Below, piece after piece: positions 23,419 through 30,931 of a stretch of DNA of 33,017 nucleotides. Where the stretch lies: assembly GCA_031282635.1 (NCBI GenBank), contig JAITDJ010000235.1, positions 1-33,017 on the forward strand, written 5' to 3'. How positions within the stretch are numbered: the stretch's first letter is position 1; every line of letters starts with the position of its first letter. This DNA comes from Clostridiales bacterium (GTDB lineage Bacteria; Bacillota; Clostridia; Lachnospirales; WQUN01). Under the pieces are notes generated by a model. That model did not search any database, had not been told where the DNA came from, and saw only the letters and a program-made list of their open reading frames with translations. Made by a program: the position numbers and the translations under genes.

Positions 23419-24699
23419 TCACGTCAGCTCCGCGATTCTTGTAACGGCCACAAATATTTCTGATAATTTATACCATGTCGCGTAATCCACAATACCGCTT
23501 TGAGGCAGGTTGAAAATACGCTGGAACGTCCGCACGGCTTCTGTGGTGGCATCGCCATATATGCCATCTACTTTTTGCTTCGGGATAGCCGGATAATTGT
23601 TGGATATGGCGTTGAGCTGTTCCTGAATTGTCCGTACCGGAGCGCCGCTCGAACCTTTCAGCTGCGCCGCGTTGGGATAAGACATCGGCGTTCCGTCTAC
23701 TTTCTGCGCCTGCGTGATATACACGTCTGAGCCATAGTAGTGCTTAAGTATATTCAAAGCCGTTTCGCCGCGATCCCCCAAATCTTTTGAACCCCACTGC
23801 GTCATCCACATCGGGCACTGCGAACGTTTCCCGTCGCAGTATTGGGCAAAAAGCGGCTGCTTGATATTTGGGCGGGTGATATAGCTGGTAAATATATCGT
23901 CAACAACCACGGAGATCTCCTCAAAGATATTCCGGCCGTAGTTAAACGCGTGGTCAAACTGCGTCGAGTTGGTTATCGTGAAACTGTAGCCCATGTTCCG
24001 GTACCATTCGGTATAAACGCGGTTCAGCGTAAACGATAGAATGGCCAGGATGTTGGCTCGGATAGTTTCCACCGGCCAGGTCGAATAGATTTCGCAGCTG
24101 GCCACGTTTTTAATATAATCCGTGAATGGAACCCAATAATTTTGAGCGGACGTGTTTGTGGGAACTCCGTTATGCACCACGACGGTTTGTGGTATTACCG
24201 GCTCCGGCAGAACGACGAACCCGCTGGACGGAGGCAGTTCTTTAACTTCGTCTTCCGGTATTTTAGGCGGGTAGTCGCCCCAAAGCACTTCCGGCTGGAT
24301 TATTATGGTATCCAGAGCTGGAGCGGGTTCGTCGAGCGGATACAGGCGGACATCCTGCAACGCCTTCGAGCCGGAAAATATCTGTACGCCTTCAATAGTC
24401 ACGCTGTCAAACCCATCCATTGAAACACGCAGATCATATTCGCTGTAGGGCTTGCCCCCGTTAGGATCCAGGGAATACTCAATCGGCGGCGCCGCCAGCT
24501 CTATCGTATCGGATTGTCCGGAATTGTCGGTTCGGAGTTCGTCCAGAATCATATCCGCCTCTCCGCGCGGCGTGATCGTAACGGTCGCGCCGGGCGCCGG
24601 CCTGCCTATATCTACTGCGTATACGCCGACCTTGAGGCTGCCTGTGTCAATCCCCAGCGAACGCGTCGGAAAGCGCCTGTAGTGAAAACTCATAGCCAT
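23419..24699 (-). CDS. sleC: SleC-like spore cortex-lytic protein (SpoIID-type domain + C-terminal peptidoglycan-binding domain)
   Basis: N-domain VGVYAVDIGRPAPGATVTI...VTIEGVQIF; SpoIID-like DYIKNVASCEIYSTWPVETIRANILAILSFTLNRVYTEWYRNMGYSFTITNSTQFDHAFNYGRNIFEEIS; C-x6-C (YCDGKRSQC); PG_binding_1 KVDGIYGDATTEAVRTFQRIFNLPQSGIVDYATWYKLSEIFVAVTRIAEL. Confidence 0.85.
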   Translation of the reverse strand: MAMSFHYRRFPTRSLGIDTGSLKVGVYAVDIGRPAPGATVTITPRGEADMILDELRTDNSGQSDTIELAAPPIEYSLDPNGGKPYSEYDLRVSMDGFDSVTIEGVQIFSGSKALQDVRLYPLDEPAPALDTIIIQPEVLWGDYPPKIPEDEVKELPPSSGFVVLPEPVIPQTVVVHNGVPTNTSAQNYWVPFTDYIKNVASCEIYSTWPVETIRANILAILSFTLNRVYTEWYRNMGYSFTITNSTQFDHAFNYGRNIFEEISVVVDDIFTSYITRPNIKQPLFAQYCDGKRSQCPMWMTQWGSKDLGDRGETALNILKHYYGSDVYITQAQKVDGTPMSYPNAAQLKGSSGAPVRTIQEQLNAISNNYPAIPKQKVDGIYGDATTEAVRTFQRIFNLPQSGIVDYATWYKLSEIFVAVTRIAELT

Positions 24700-24705
24700 T
24701 CACTC

Positions 24706-26430
24706 CTATAATGTTTGATACCTGACCAGCTCATCCATTGAACTGCGCAGGCAGAGAGCGCCAAAACCCCAGAGGGGGTTCGGGTATTCGAGGGCGGCCG
24801 TACGCGCGGCGCCGCTTTTCAGGAACGCTTTGACGCGCTGGTTATATAGGTAGATATCGTTGTTCTGTACTATTCCCCATTGCATCATCAAAGCGACCGC
24901 TCCGGTAACGAACGGCGCCGCTATGCTGGTGCCTGTATAACTGTCATACCCGCCGCCCATGCGCGCGGCCAATATACTTATGCCCGGAGCGACGATATCC
25001 GGCTTAATACCTGATAAACGCGTATAGCCCCTGCCGGAAAAATCCGCGACGCTGTTCAGCCGGTAATCATACGCCCCCACGCTGATCGCATTGGACGACG
25101 TCGCGGGCAGCGTGACTGTTGTGTATGGATCAGGCGTTGTAAAACGCGTGCCATCTGAGACCTCTTCTAAAACAGGCAGCCATATATCAAATTTACCCTC
25201 GACGCATATCCCTGACCTTATAACAATGCGCCATAAACCGACGGGGATAGAGCCCGTTACAGCTTTAACCTGAAAAAATATCTCCTGGTTTTCATTATAG
25301 TGCTTGGGCTGGCCGTACCGCGCGTATATGGCGATATCGCCGAAACGCATGGAACGAGCCGGGCTGACGGAGTCTATCGCCCCTGTTGATTGCTGATTGG
25401 GTATAATCAGTTCGACAGTCATATCGTCAACAAAATTTTTCCAGAACGTAATAAAAAAGGATTTAAGCCCTCCGGACGTGGTGAACTGGGCGTCAGATGT
25501 CTCATACGAGCCTATCGTCCCTTTGAAATGATGCCCGGCGGCGCCTTCATTCCCCGCGGCCACAATTATATTCGTCTTCCATTTCCGCGCCATTTCATTC
25601 ACATATGTTTCAAACAGCGATTCCCCGTCATGTGAGCCGTTGCTGGTGCCGTAACTGATATTGATCGCTATCGGCATATTCAGCGACATAGCCTTTTCAA
25701 TACAATATTTGACGGCGCGCATCAATTCAGTATCCCGCACGAAAGAGCGCTCGCCCGTACGTCCCAGGCGTACCGCTATGATGGACGCCTCGGGCGCGAC
25801 GCCCATATTCGCGCCTTTGCTCGCGCGGCCGTTTCCCGCGGCGACGCCCGCTACCGCTGTGCCATGTCCGATGCCGTCCAATTCCGGTATTACGGAAAAC
25901 GGCTGAATTTCTTTCAACGCGGCGTTCAGCGCCTCATTGTCATATTCCACGCCATGGTTAAAACCGTCGGGCGCTTTCCCTCCCCCTGCGGCGGATTGAT
26001 CCCAGATATACACTATACGGCTTGTGCCGTCCGGATTACGGAAGTCCGGATGGGTATAGTCAACGCCTGAATCTATTATGGCTACGATCACGCCTTTACC
26101 CGTTAAATTAAAGCTCAATTGGCTCTGCACGATGGATATGCAAGATCGTCCGACTGCGTTATTCAATGAATACGAGAGACTTTTAGGCATCTCAATATAT
26201 TCGATCTCGCTGTATCCGTTTAAAGCGGGGATTTTACCTTCATCCAGTGTGATAATGGCCAGAGTCTCAGTCAAAATTTCCACTTTGACGCCCAGTTCTG
26301 ACGCCAAGCGGGAAAGGTCGCCGCCGTACTTGACGATAACCTCCCATGTATTGTCAGTCTCGTTAAAACCCGCGCGCAGTTCACTGTCGTCATAAATCGC
26401 GTCATCCGTGTAAGACAAACTCATATACAT
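24706..26430 (-). CDS. Csp-like S8 (subtilisin) serine protease, germination-protease type
   Basis: IIDSGVDYTHPDF (Asp), GIGHGTAVAGVAAG (His), VAAGNEGAAGHH (oxyanion Asn), YTGTSIAAPFVTGAVALM (Ser); adjacent to sleC. Confidence 0.87.
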   Translation of the reverse strand: MYMSLSYTDDAIYDDSELRAGFNETDNTWEVIVKYGGDLSRLASELGVKVEILTETLAIITLDEGKIPALNGYSEIEYIEMPKSLSYSLNNAVGRSCISIVQSQLSFNLTGKGVIVAIIDSGVDYTHPDFRNPDGTSRIVYIWDQSAAGGGKAPDGFNHGVEYDNEALNAALKEIQPFSVIPELDGIGHGTAVAGVAAGNGRASKGANMGVAPEASIIAVRLGRTGERSFVRDTELMRAVKYCIEKAMSLNMPIAINISYGTSNGSHDGESLFETYVNEMARKWKTNIIVAAGNEGAAGHHFKGTIGSYETSDAQFTTSGGLKSFFITFWKNFVDDMTVELIIPNQQSTGAIDSVSPARSMRFGDIAIYARYGQPKHYNENQEIFFQVKAVTGSIPVGLWRIVIRSGICVEGKFDIWLPVLEEVSDGTRFTTPDPYTTVTLPATSSNAISVGAYDYRLNSVADFSGRGYTRLSGIKPDIVAPGISILAARMGGGYDSYTGTSIAAPFVTGAVALMMQWGIVQNNDIYLYNQRVKAFLKSGAARTAALEYPNPLWGFGALCLRSSMDELVRYQTL

Positions 26431-26540
26431 TCCCGCCTTTGCAAGTGTATACTCTATGTTATTCCCGTATGACTAAGCAGTGCATTGTCCTGTCACCAAA
26501 CGCCAAAAAAAAAATATACTGACTAGAGAAAGCATGAGGG

Positions 26541-29078
26541 GTGAAAAGGTTGGGTACAGGCCACTTAACTGTCAGTGTTTACACCGCGGATGAAGCTTTG
26601 CCTGTTAACTGCGCTCTGGTTTCGGTAATGGAGCCAAACGGTGAATTGCTGTATACCATAAATACAGACGATAGCGGCCAGACAGAAACCGTCGCGATAG
26701 AAGCGCCAAATAAATCACATACGCTCGATCCAAATGACGCGGGCCCGCACTACTCAAAAATTTATGTTCGCATTACCGCGCAGGGGTTCGAGGAAACCGT
26801 CATCCACGGGGTACACATTTATGATACATCCGTGTCGCTGCTGCCTGTCAAACTCATTCCACTGTCTATTGATCTCGACAGCCATGTTATCAACGATATA
26901 AGCATCCCGAAAAATTCTGTGGAATTGACGGCGGAGCGCGTGCAAGAAGGTCCGACGGATTATGTCAGTACGCAAGAAGATGTGGTTATACCCGATTATA
27001 TTATCATTCATCTGGGCGCCCCGGCGTCAAACGCTCAAAATGTGCGCGCGCGTTTTATCGACTACATCAAAAACGCAGCTTCTCACGAAGTGTATGACAC
27101 ATGGCCTGAAGACGCGTTGGAAGCAAATATTCTGTGTATAATCAGCTTCACGCTTAACCGGATTGGCAGCAAATGGTATACTGGCAGAGGATACAGCTTT
27201 GATATAACCAACAATACGCGATATGATCAGGCTTTTGTGTATAATGGCGATATCGGCGGGAATATTTCCAGAATCGTGGACAGGGTTTTCAATCAATACA
27301 TTCGATTACCGGGCCATAAAGAGCCATATTTTGCCGCGTATTGCAGTGACCCGCATTCAGAATGCCCCGGGCGGCTGTCGCAGTGGGGAACCGTGACCCT
27401 GGCCCAAAGCGGGATGGACGCCCTCCGCATTATCCGTGATTTTTACCCGGCGGACGCCGAGATTGCCCAAACATTTAATTTTGCCGGCATTTCCGTTCCA
27501 TACCCAGGACATGAACTGGACACAGGGTATGACAGCGCGGACGTCGGTACAATCAAATCATGGTTGAACCGTATAGGCGCCAATTTTCCCAATATACCTT
27601 CAATCTCAAATACGGACAATAATGTATTCGACGCGCAGACCGCCGAAGCCGTAAGGGCGTTTCAGCGGACGTTCAATCTGAATGCAAGCGGCGTGGCGGA
27701 TAAGGTCACCTGGTATAAGATAGCGCAGATCGATGGCGCCGTAAATCAACTGGACGAATTAGTTAACGAAAGCGAGTCTGTGGATATAGGCGCCGTTTTG
27801 CCTGCCGTCGCGCTCCGTGAAGGCGCCCGCGGTCCGGATGTGGCTGCGCTTCAATTTCTGCTGAATTATTTATCGGAATTTTATTACAGCATTCCGCCTG
27901 TTATTGAAAACGCTGTGTTTGACACGCGTACAAAGACATCCGTTGTGATGTTTCAAAACTTAATAGGCACGACAGCGGACGGCGTCGTAGGACCTATGAC
28001 ATGGCAGCTTATACTTAATGCCTACAAAGGCATAAAGCTGAATGTCGCGGTTCCGCAGGCAGCGGGCCCGGAACATGAATCCTCTCTGTATCCCGGCTGC
28101 CCTCTCAAAAATGGTAGCGGCGGGTCGGCGGTTCTGAGCCTGCAAAAGATGCTCAACCACTTATCCGAGTATTATCCCCAGATCCCCAAATTAGCGGAGG
28201 ATGGACGGTTCGGCAATTTAACGCGTTCAGCCGTATTCACATTCCAGAACATTTTCAGCCTGACAGCGGACGGCGTTGCTGACTCGGAAACATGGAGCGA
28301 ACTGATACGCCAATTGGATAAAGTGGGTGATTACAACGACGATTCAGGGTCGTACATCTTCCCTCAAAATGGTTTACCGGATGCAAATGAAAATAAAACA
28401 GAGTTATATGAAAATAAACCAGGGCCATATGAAAGCCTGTATGGAAGTTGGATGAACCCTATGTATAATGAGAATATAAGCGGCGGCGCGCCCGCGCAGA
28501 CTTGGCGGGATACAGATATATACAGTCAGGTGGAGGATTTGTTCGCATATCAGCGGCCATACCAGGCGCAGACGGATATCGCCGAGTCTTCCGCGCGGGA
28601 GCAGGCGGCGCGCCCTGCCCAAACAGCCGATGCACAACCCATTCAGACAGCAGATGCACAGCCCATTCAGACAGTAGTGCGCGCGCAGCCGGTATTACGA
28701 CCGGTTCAGACGGTTCAGACCGGGCTTAATCGGCCCGCGGAGCTGACTGTGCCGTATGGCCCCGCTTATCCGGTTGTTGTGGATCAGCCTGTGCCGTATG
28801 GCTCCGCTTATCCGGTTGCTGCAGATCAGCCTGTGCCGTATGGTCCCGCTTATCCGGTTGTTGCGGATCAGCCGGCGGCGCAAACCAGCCTGAACACGGC
28901 GGCTCACGGCATCGGTCCAACCGAGTGCGCGGCCTGCGCGGCCCGCGGGCAGGCGCCGCCCGCTGTGGCGTACAGCGGCGCCGCGGCGGTGAAGTCAAGC
29001 GGATTAACGATACCGGATTCCGTTTTTTATCTATTTTTACTGCGTCTATTGTATCTAAAACGCCATTGCTGTTATTAG
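26541..29078 (+). CDS. Extended SleC-like protein: SpoIID-type domain, three PG_binding_1 domains, Pro/Tyr/Gln repeat tail (start GTG 26541 or TTG 26550)
   Basis: TGHLTVSVYTADEALPVNCALVSV; DYIKNAASHEVYDTWPEDALEANILCIISFTLNRIGSKWYTGRGYSFDITNNTRYDQAFVYNGDIGGNIS; YCSDPHSEC; three PGB repeats (~27547-27717, ~27818-28020, ~28109-28310). Confidence 0.82.
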   Translation: MKRLGTGHLTVSVYTADEALPVNCALVSVMEPNGELLYTINTDDSGQTETVAIEAPNKSHTLDPNDAGPHYSKIYVRITAQGFEETVIHGVHIYDTSVSLLPVKLIPLSIDLDSHVINDISIPKNSVELTAERVQEGPTDYVSTQEDVVIPDYIIIHLGAPASNAQNVRARFIDYIKNAASHEVYDTWPEDALEANILCIISFTLNRIGSKWYTGRGYSFDITNNTRYDQAFVYNGDIGGNISRIVDRVFNQYIRLPGHKEPYFAAYCSDPHSECPGRLSQWGTVTLAQSGMDALRIIRDFYPADAEIAQTFNFAGISVPYPGHELDTGYDSADVGTIKSWLNRIGANFPNIPSISNTDNNVFDAQTAEAVRAFQRTFNLNASGVADKVTWYKIAQIDGAVNQLDELVNESESVDIGAVLPAVALREGARGPDVAALQFLLNYLSEFYYSIPPVIENAVFDTRTKTSVVMFQNLIGTTADGVVGPMTWQLILNAYKGIKLNVAVPQAAGPEHESSLYPGCPLKNGSGGSAVLSLQKMLNHLSEYYPQIPKLAEDGRFGNLTRSAVFTFQNIFSLTADGVADSETWSELIRQLDKVGDYNDDSGSYIFPQNGLPDANENKTELYENKPGPYESLYGSWMNPMYNENISGGAPAQTWRDTDIYSQVEDLFAYQRPYQAQTDIAESSAREQAARPAQTADAQPIQTADAQPIQTVVRAQPVLRPVQTVQTGLNRPAELTVPYGPAYPVVVDQPVPYGSAYPVAADQPVPYGPAYPVVADQPAAQTSLNTAAHGIGPTECAACAARGQAPPAVAYSGAAAVKSSGLTIPDSVFYLFLLRLLYLKRHCCY
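28620..28667 (+). repeat. 24-bp in-frame direct repeat (QTADAQPI x2)
   Basis: caaacagccgatgcacaacccatt / cagacagcagatgcacagcccatt. Confidence 0.8.
28749..28874 (+). repeat. Three tandem 42-bp in-frame repeats (VPYGPAYPVVVDQP-type, 14 aa)
   Basis: gtgccgtatggccccgcttatccggttgttgtggatcagcct at 28749, 28791 and 28833 with few substitutions. Confidence 0.92.
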
Positions 29079-29112
29079 CAAAAGGCCCCTGGAAAAATCC
29101 GGGGCCTTTTGC
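29078..29112 (+). terminator. Rho-independent terminator-like hairpin after the extended SleC-like gene
   Basis: GCAAAAGGCCCC-tggaaaaatcc-GGGGCCTTTTGC. Confidence 0.82.
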
Positions 29113-29206: not shown

Positions 29207-30931
29207 TTACGTACTTCTCAGGCTTAAAAACGAATTATACAGATTCAGGCGTCCGTAACCCCATTGATCGTTGGGATATTCGAGCCAAGTGTCACGCTCG
29301 CAGCCCTGAATCAATACAGAGCGCACATGATACGTATTCATGCTCACGGCATTCTCCAATATCAACCCCCATTCCAGGAGGAGCGCGCACGCGCCCGCGG
29401 TAATAGCCGCGGCGGCGCTTGTGCCGGACATAATGCCGTAGTCGCTGGGGAAAATACCGCCCACGTCCACGCCGGGGGCGGCGAGATCCGGGATCGCGGC
29501 GTGCAGGCGGGACGGCCCCCAGGATGAAAGCTCGTATAAACTATTGTCCCTGGTACTGTAGGCCCCGCAGGCGATTATTCCCACGGCCGTCGCGGGAACC
29601 GTTACCGTATAGTTGGGATCCGGGGTCAAAAAATCTATGCCGGAGCTTCCCATTCCGCTTATCGGAAGCCATATATGAAATACGCCGTCCAATATCAGCT
29701 CCCCGTAAAGCTGCAGCCGCCATATCCCGGGCGTTGGATCGCTGATGCGTATCACCGTCAGCTGCGCGCTGTTGCCGCTGTAAGGGAATCTATAGGTTAT
29801 CATTACCCGAGCGTTTTCCATTATAAGGCGGGTTGTGGTGGTTTCGCCCGATCGCGCGGGCACGCGGGAAATGCTCTCCCCTGTAGGCGATATCAGCGAC
29901 GCGGACAGGCGATCCGTAAGACTATTCCATATAGATAAATATACGGACTCTGTATTTTCGGAAGAGCGGAATTCCACTGTAGCCGTCGCGCCGGTCGCCT
30001 CAACCCTGCCGGTGGCATGGCGCTTTACGGCGGATTCGTTGCCTGCGGCGCAGCAAACCGAAACCCCGTTTATATAGGAGACCCCTGAAACAAAATCCTC
30101 AAGGGCGCTGAAACCGTCATGGCTGCCCAAATTAGTGCCTATACCGATGCAAATGGCGACAGGCCTGTTAAGTTCCTGCGCTTTTGTGATGATATAGTCT
30201 ATTCCCAGCATTAAGTCAACAGATTCATATACATCCTGATATTGGGAAGGCACCATATATAAGTCCCTATAATACGGGGATATTTCCTTTATCTTTACAA
30301 TAACGAACTCGGCGTCCGGGGCGGCGCCCGCGTACATACCCGGTTCGTGGCTGCCCGCCAGCGAAGCCAGAAAAGTCCCATGCCCGACGGTATCCCGATG
30401 CGGTACGACGCTGTAAGGGTCGTCGGACTTCAAGGCCTTATTTATATTGTTTGCGGTAAACTCGAACCCGAAGTTAAAGTCGAACGGCGCACCCATGCCG
30501 GTTATGGTCTGATCCCAGATGTTTCTGATTTTTGTTGTGCCGTCCTCCCAGCAAAACGCCGATTTAGTATAGTCAATACCTGTGTCTATAAACCCCAGCA
30601 GCACGCCGCCGCCGCGCAGACTCAGATAAGGCTGCTGCTGAACCGCGCTTATGCCGGCCGCGTTAAGATCAAACTGGGAGAAAAGGCCCATCGCCAAGGA
30701 ATAATTAATCGATTTATTGTTTCTGTATAATGGCTCAAGCAGATCGATTCGGATGTAAACGATTACAAAATTACCGCTCAGTTCTTTTCCCAGTCGTATA
30801 TTGGGCGTATCGCTTAAATCAAGATTAGCTAAGTCATTGCTGCGTAAAACAACGGCCGCGGTATATGGCGACAGAATAAATTCTTCTAACGATAGATCTT
30901 CAAATGATATGTCGTTCAAATCAACGCTCAT
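29207..30931 (-). CDS. Second Csp-like S8 (subtilisin) serine protease
   Basis: GFIDTGIDYTKSAF (Asp), DTVGHGTFLASLAG (His), CCAAGNESAVKRH (Asn), IMSGTSAAAAITAGACALLLEWG (Ser). Confidence 0.85.
   Translation of the reverse strand: MSVDLNDISFEDLSLEEFILSPYTAAVVLRSNDLANLDLSDTPNIRLGKELSGNFVIVYIRIDLLEPLYRNNKSINYSLAMGLFSQFDLNAAGISAVQQQPYLSLRGGGVLLGFIDTGIDYTKSAFCWEDGTTKIRNIWDQTITGMGAPFDFNFGFEFTANNINKALKSDDPYSVVPHRDTVGHGTFLASLAGSHEPGMYAGAAPDAEFVIVKIKEISPYYRDLYMVPSQYQDVYESVDLMLGIDYIITKAQELNRPVAICIGIGTNLGSHDGFSALEDFVSGVSYINGVSVCCAAGNESAVKRHATGRVEATGATATVEFRSSENTESVYLSIWNSLTDRLSASLISPTGESISRVPARSGETTTTRLIMENARVMITYRFPYSGNSAQLTVIRISDPTPGIWRLQLYGELILDGVFHIWLPISGMGSSGIDFLTPDPNYTVTVPATAVGIIACGAYSTRDNSLYELSSWGPSRLHAAIPDLAAPGVDVGGIFPSDYGIMSGTSAAAAITAGACALLLEWGLILENAVSMNTYHVRSVLIQGCERDTWLEYPNDQWGYGRLNLYNSFLSLRST

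What the first reader, a model, noticed from the sequence alone, without database searches (positions are those of the whole stretch)
26541..29078. SleC-like protein with triple peptidoglycan-binding domains, repetitive Pro/Tyr/Gln tail and Cys-rich hydrophobic C-terminus
After the SpoIID-like domain there are three PG_binding_1 units instead of one. These are followed by a low-complexity linker (LYENKPGPYESLYG, QTADAQPI x2, VPYGPAYPVVVDQP x3) and an end containing CAAC and IPDSVFYLFLLRLLYLKRHCCY. The tail is unlike the single-PGB SleC at 23419. It suggests coat anchoring, Tyr/Cys crosslinking or a length-variable spacer.
Basis: partly seen in the sequence, partly recalled or inferred. Interest (0 to 1): 0.6.

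Follow-up and report, generated by a model that had tools for sequence, protein, structure and literature searches.

The report
Spore-cortex enzyme with conserved C-terminal tether
This is a second, longer version of the enzyme that bacterial spores use to dissolve their inner wall when they wake; its odd, fast-changing tail ends in a short greasy, positively charged helix that recurs in many relatives and in some unrelated spore-type enzymes, so it looks like a real docking tag and not a sequencing error.

Summary
In detail: one open frame, three PG_binding_1 domains, a repetitive Pro/Tyr/Gln linker, CAAC and a hydrophobic C-terminus. The start is better placed at TTG 26550. The protein is not a modified copy of the neighbouring single-PGB SleC. 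It is a distinct, old paralogue of the multi-PGB type already described as SleC2a/b in C. botulinum Group II (PMC5083711); canonical SleCs form a separate 100/100 clade.

The tail is not an artefact. The congeneric orthologue carries it in frame with dN/dS about 0.2, and it has four PGBs, so the window copy has one fewer. Of 142 multi-PGB SleCs, 53 have a tail of at least 20 aa, 37 (mostly Lachnospiraceae) carry LysM there and 52 have none. The linkers do not align across genera, yet CxC/CxxC recurs (17 vs 2.9 expected) and most tails end in a short hydrophobic, net-positive segment. The same ending occurs on multi-PGB amidases. A sigmaK-type promoter precedes the gene and most relatives. No signal peptide was seen.

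Best reading: a late mother-cell zymogen held at the cortex/coat boundary by PGBs and by a flexible, Cys-bearing tether with a C-terminal docking helix. Docking is inferred.

The parts
26495..26521 (+). sigmaK-type promoter: AC (-35), N16, AATATACTG (-10)
   Evidence: Relaxed pattern AC-N15-17-[CA]ATAnnnT[AG] found upstream of 19 of 27 long sleC genes (1.2 expected from shuffles, maximum 4) and 9 of 16 in an independent set (0.85 expected). Not a mapped promoter.
26537..26543 (+). Ribosome binding site AGGGGTG
   Evidence: Sequence; same position in relatives
26550..29078 (+). Multi-PGB SleC (SleC2-type), 842 aa from TTG
26550..26975 (+). N-terminal Ig-like domain, equivalent to the SleC pro-region
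   Evidence: Aligned to 9h68; beta strands in the model
26976..27485 (+). SpoIID-like lytic transglycosylase domain; E183 (27087-27089) invariant
   Evidence: E183 invariant in 20/20; E in 140/140 proteins where the motif could be found. Catalytic role is inferred from the SpoIID family.
27534..27719 (+). PG_binding_1 domain 1
27828..28010 (+). PG_binding_1 domain 2
28122..28301 (+). PG_binding_1 domain 3 (a fourth, present in the G001 orthologue, is missing after it)
28329..29009 (+). Disordered linker of about 227 aa
   Evidence: AlphaFold pLDDT about 25 over residues 597-824
28536..28562 (+). DLFAYQRPY, short linear motif DLxxYxxPY
   Evidence: Seven copies in five proteins of four genera of the same family
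28623..28674 (+). 24-bp tandem repeat
28747..28873 (+). 42-bp tandem repeat x3 (VPYGPAYPVVVDQP)
   Evidence: one related unit in the orthologue
28926..28937 (+). CAAC (CxxC) in the linker
   Evidence: CVAC in the orthologue; CxC/CxxC in 17 of 53 tails vs 2.9 expected
29010..29075 (+). C-terminal module: hydrophobic helix with Lys/Arg/Cys end (PDSVFYLFLLRLLYLKRHCCY)
   Evidence: Helix 824-841, pLDDT 55-74; dN/dS about 0.2; recurrence
29080..29110 (+). Intrinsic-terminator-like hairpin aaaaggcccc..ggggcctttt right after the stop
   Evidence: Sequence
23419..24699 (-). Canonical single-PGB SleC (paralogue)
24706..26430 (-). CspB-like protease with prodomain, divergent from long sleC
   Evidence: same divergent order in G001, G015, G020
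29207..30931 (-). Second Csp-family subtilase, convergent
   Evidence: beside the orthologue in G001 and beside the G024 long sleC

Best explanation
The gene encodes a SleC2-type zymogen: an N-terminal Ig-like pro-region, a SpoIID-like lytic transglycosylase domain and three peptidoglycan-binding domains. It is made late in the mother cell from a sigmaK-type promoter, without a signal peptide. After the folded part comes a roughly 230-residue disordered tether and a short hydrophobic, basic, Cys-bearing C-terminal helix. The helix docks the enzyme on the forespore surface (outer forespore membrane face or a coat protein), the Cys pairs may lock it there by disulfides, and the PGBs hold it to cortex peptidoglycan, so the enzyme sits at the cortex/coat boundary until a Csp protease activates it at germination. 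Shown here: the architecture, in-frame selection, recurrence of the C-terminal module and Cys pairs, the promoter motif and the csp neighbourhood. Inferred: the location, the docking partner, activation by Csp and cortex cleavage.
For: SleC homology and fold. Conserved Glu. Orthologue with the tail in frame, dN/dS about 0.2. Linker disordered, end helical. C-terminal module: mean net charge of the last 10 residues +2.3 vs -0.06 in soluble background proteins, and 21/43 vs 0/47 pass a joint hydrophobic and charge cut; Fisher p 3e-21 over tails vs their own shuffles (rows not phylogenetically independent). The same ending on Amidase_2 and Amidase_3 proteins with PGB repeats. LysM in the same place in Lachnospiraceae; the C-terminal LysM of SipL recruits it to the forespore by binding SpoIVA (PMC6436350). 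sigmaK-type promoter; C. difficile sleC is sigmaK-dependent (PMC3789822). Divergent csp gene in four genomes.
Against: No expression, localisation or binding data. The module is weak or absent in some tails (for example L047, L054 at the very end) and 52 of 142 multi-PGB SleCs have no tail, so it is not needed for the class. Clades are related, so the counts are not independent. Two amidases that end in PGBs lack the module, one of them with a sigmaK-like promoter.
Confidence: 0.5

Rival explanations
1. The C-terminal helix is a membrane anchor: a tail-anchored or monotopic segment inserted in the outer forespore membrane.
For: No signal peptide, hydrophobic segment at the extreme C-terminus, flanking basic residues.
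Against: Only 3 of 43 endings reach the usual 19-residue transmembrane threshold, and the median uncharged run is 8 residues, so a full span is unlikely; peripheral insertion remains possible.
Confidence: 0.2
2. The tail is a coat-crosslinking tether: Cys (and in this clade Tyr) residues bond the enzyme covalently to coat proteins, and the hydrophobic end only aids packing.
For: CxC/CxxC in 17 of 53 linkers vs 2.9 expected; Cys also at the very end in several; 19 Tyr in the window tail.
Against: About two thirds of tails lack the pair; several tails have no Cys at all; Tyr richness is limited to one clade.
Confidence: 0.15
3. The tail is a neutral, drifting low-complexity extension with no function beyond the PGBs.
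For: Repeats and composition are lineage-specific; many relatives have no tail.
Against: dN/dS about 0.2 in the C-terminal module, recurrence of the ending across genera and enzyme classes.
Confidence: 0.12
4. Frameshift, misassembly or chimaera after the third PGB.
For: The window copy lacks the fourth PGB of its orthologue.
Against: The G001 orthologue aligns through the whole tail in the same frame to the last residue; the terminator follows the stop.
Confidence: 0.02

Closest known systems
SleC2a/SleC2b of Clostridium botulinum Group II (PMC5083711)
   Same: SpoIID/LytB-type domain followed by several PGBs; second sleC-like gene beside a canonical SleC system
   Different: Described there with 4-5 PGBs (about 792 and 698 residues); no tail, Cys pair or C-terminal helix is reported in the passages read; not compared by sequence here
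Canonical SleC (C. difficile 9h68; C. perfringens SleC; window 23419-24699)
   Same: Ig-like pro-region, SpoIID-like domain, first PGB; sigmaK control in C. difficile
   Different: One PGB, no tail in 13 of 13 inspected; separate clade
Lachnospiraceae multi-PGB SleC with C-terminal LysM (seen here)
   Same: Core and two PGBs, extra C-terminal targeting-type domain
   Different: One to three LysM domains in place of the disordered tether and helix
SipL C-terminal LysM / SpoIVA docking (PMC6436350)
   Same: Works alike, if the docking idea is right: a C-terminal element recruits a mother-cell protein to the forespore
   Different: A folded LysM domain, no sequence relation to the helix

Membership tests
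SleC superfamily | Ig-like N-domain plus SpoIID-like domain homologous to SleC | tested here: met
   9h68 E 1e-67 over residues 6-404; Foldseek E 1.9e-34
SleC superfamily | Conserved catalytic-type Glu | tested here: met
   E183 invariant; catalysis itself not testable
SleC superfamily | Zymogen activated by Csp cleavage | not testable with these tools
   Only csp neighbours shown
Canonical SleC | Single PGB and membership of the canonical clade | tested here: not met
   Three PGBs; outside the 100/100 clade of single-PGB SleCs
SleC2-type (multi-PGB SleC) | SpoIID/LytB domain plus several PGBs beside a canonical SleC | tested here: met
   definition from PMC5083711. C. botulinum sequences were not compared, so common descent with SleC2a/b is not shown
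Tail-anchored membrane protein | C-terminal transmembrane span of about 19 residues | tested here: not met
   Window maximum KD19 1.41; 3 of 43 endings reach 1.6
LysM protein | LysM domain | tested here: not met
   No LysM in the window protein

The most novel reading that the evidence does not exclude
A portable C-terminal docking signal (disordered tether, Cys pair, short hydrophobic-basic helix) sorts several different mother-cell peptidoglycan hydrolases to the forespore surface in Lachnospirales-like bacteria, doing the job that LysM domains do in Lachnospiraceae.
Probability: 0.35. Interest if true: 0.7.

Novelty: new variant of a known kind. Interest (0 to 1): 0.5.

Why it matters
How cortex-lytic enzymes made in the mother cell are placed and kept at the cortex/coat boundary is poorly understood, mostly studied with canonical SleC in a few clostridia. 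A short, recurrent C-terminal element on a multi-PGB SleC and on unrelated amidases gives a concrete, testable candidate for a sorting signal, and the LysM versus helix swap between families suggests that both serve the same step.

Tried and rejected
Close-relative scan with the window protein alone found nothing in genome contigs. Searching relatives with the tail alone found it only in the congeneric orthologue; other hits were low-complexity noise, so the tail is conserved as features and not as alignable sequence. Hydrophobicity of the ending vs shuffles of the same tail is weak for Pro/hydrophobic-rich tails (23 of 53 below 0.05), which is why a background of other proteins was also used. 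Full transmembrane anchor rejected. Strict sigmaK consensus is rare (4 of 27, 0.2 expected; 1 of 16 in the second set), so the relaxed pattern carries the promoter claim, and it was relaxed after seeing the first sequences. The short-SleC promoter control gave no usable sequences. Another own-genome amidase (C206) has no such tail. Plasmid search added only distant multi-PGB proteins.

Full report
The open frame 26541-29078 is real. A ribosome site AGGGGTG at 26537-26543 and the start position of relatives place the start at TTG 26550. Pfam gives three PG_binding_1 domains and a weak SpoIID match; the protein matches the C. difficile SleC zymogen 9h68 over its first 400 residues by sequence and by fold. 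Tandem Repeats Finder confirms 42-bp x3, 24-bp x2.2 and 21-bp x2.3 arrays in the tail.

It is a paralogue and not a decorated copy of the neighbouring SleC. In a maximum-likelihood tree of the shared core, complete single-PGB SleCs, including window 23419-24699, form one clade (100/100), and the long protein lies elsewhere with long proteins of the same family (one apparent exception, L241, is a contig-edge fragment). Multi-PGB SleC has been described as SleC2a/b in C. botulinum Group II, with 4-5 PGBs and unknown function (PMC5083711). The host genome has another long copy (C141, four PGBs).

The tail is coding and selected. The congeneric orthologue G001:C130 aligns to the last residue in the same frame; dN/dS is about 0.2 in the folded domains and about 0.2 in the C-terminal 26 residues, higher (about 0.35) in the repeat region. 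The orthologue has a fourth PGB that the window copy lacks.

What recurs in the tail. Among 142 non-redundant multi-PGB SleCs with a complete 3' end, 53 have a tail of at least 20 residues, 37 have LysM domains instead and 52 have little or nothing; inspected canonical SleCs end just after the PGB (13 of 13). The linkers differ in composition between genera, but CxC/CxxC occurs in 17 of 53 (2.9 expected from shuffles, maximum 8). Leaving out ten tails that plainly lack the ending, the rest end in a segment rich in LIVMF (0.42 vs 0.31 in 47 soluble background proteins) with net charge +2.3 in the last ten residues (background -0.06); 21 of 43 vs 0 of 47 pass a joint cut. That exclusion was made by eye and inflates the contrast; relatedness inflates it further. 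A motif DLxxYxxPY recurs in five proteins of the window's family. AlphaFold predicts the folded part to residue 597, disorder to 824, then a helix 824-841 of moderate confidence. The segment is too short for a standard transmembrane span in 40 of 43.

The ending is not confined to SleC. Multi-PGB amidases of two different families (Amidase_2 in G000 and G001, Amidase_3 in G016 and G028) carry it, as do two small PGB proteins (L123, L138). Amidases ending in PGBs and CAP-domain proteins do not. That is four of six amidases inspected, so the claim of a portable module rests on few cases.

Expression. A sigmaK-like promoter (AC-N15-17-[CA]ATAnnnT[AG]) precedes 19 of 27 long sleC genes (1.2 expected) and 9 of 16 in a second set (0.85 expected). 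The pattern was relaxed from the published -35 AC and -10 CATA type; C. difficile sleC itself is sigmaK-dependent and csp genes sigmaE-dependent (PMC3789822). The canonical sleC and a CspB-like gene lie divergently upstream in G000, G015 and G020; in G001 the csp gene is there but the contig ends inside it.

Mechanism. Made late in the mother cell without a signal peptide, such an enzyme must be recruited to the forespore surface. In Lachnospiraceae the position is filled by LysM; SipL uses a C-terminal LysM to bind SpoIVA and reach the forespore (PMC6436350). By analogy the helix is most likely a docking element, the linker a tether, the Cys pair a possible lock, and the PGBs the cortex side. 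Location, partner, lock and activation are inference.

Noticed in passing
L221, L231, L235, L236, L237, L240, L245, L246, L248; L145-L153: In many Oscillospirales-like genomes and family f17 the Ig-like pro-region and the catalytic part of the multi-PGB SleC are two adjacent genes, split just before the conserved IPExITVHLG, often with a new ribosome site and ATG. The zymogen would be pre-cut at the domain border.
   Followed up: partly
L133-L137, L142, L156, L179-L201 and others: Lachnospiraceae multi-PGB SleCs carry one to three LysM domains at the C-terminus.
   Followed up: partly
L037:1239-3680 (G000:C141): Second long SleC of the same genome: four PGBs and a tail with about seven copies of a (N)NGNQVPVQYNN-type repeat.
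   Followed up: partly
L045:3529-8127 (-), L040:4226-7882: Long SleCs with 11 and 9 PGBs (1533 and 1219 aa); these 7.7-8.8 Mb genomes of one genus carry several long copies each.
   Followed up: no
L038:2214-3686 (-): Amidase_2 with three PGBs and the ending CNTVFLLAALFLLY, next to another Amidase_2 gene; its best sigmaK-like site is 111 bases upstream.
   Followed up: partly
window:24706-26430 and 29207-30931: Both Csp-family proteins appear by eye to keep Asp, His and Ser motifs; only the first has a detected CspB prodomain. No formal triad alignment was made.
   Followed up: no
L187, L191: MAGs labelled Muribaculaceae and Prevotella contain multi-PGB SleC contigs, probably mis-binned Clostridia.
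   Followed up: no
L123:2377-2781 (G018:C43): A 135-aa frame with one PGB ends in almost the same 20 residues as the long SleC of that genome; small gene or fragment.
   Followed up: no
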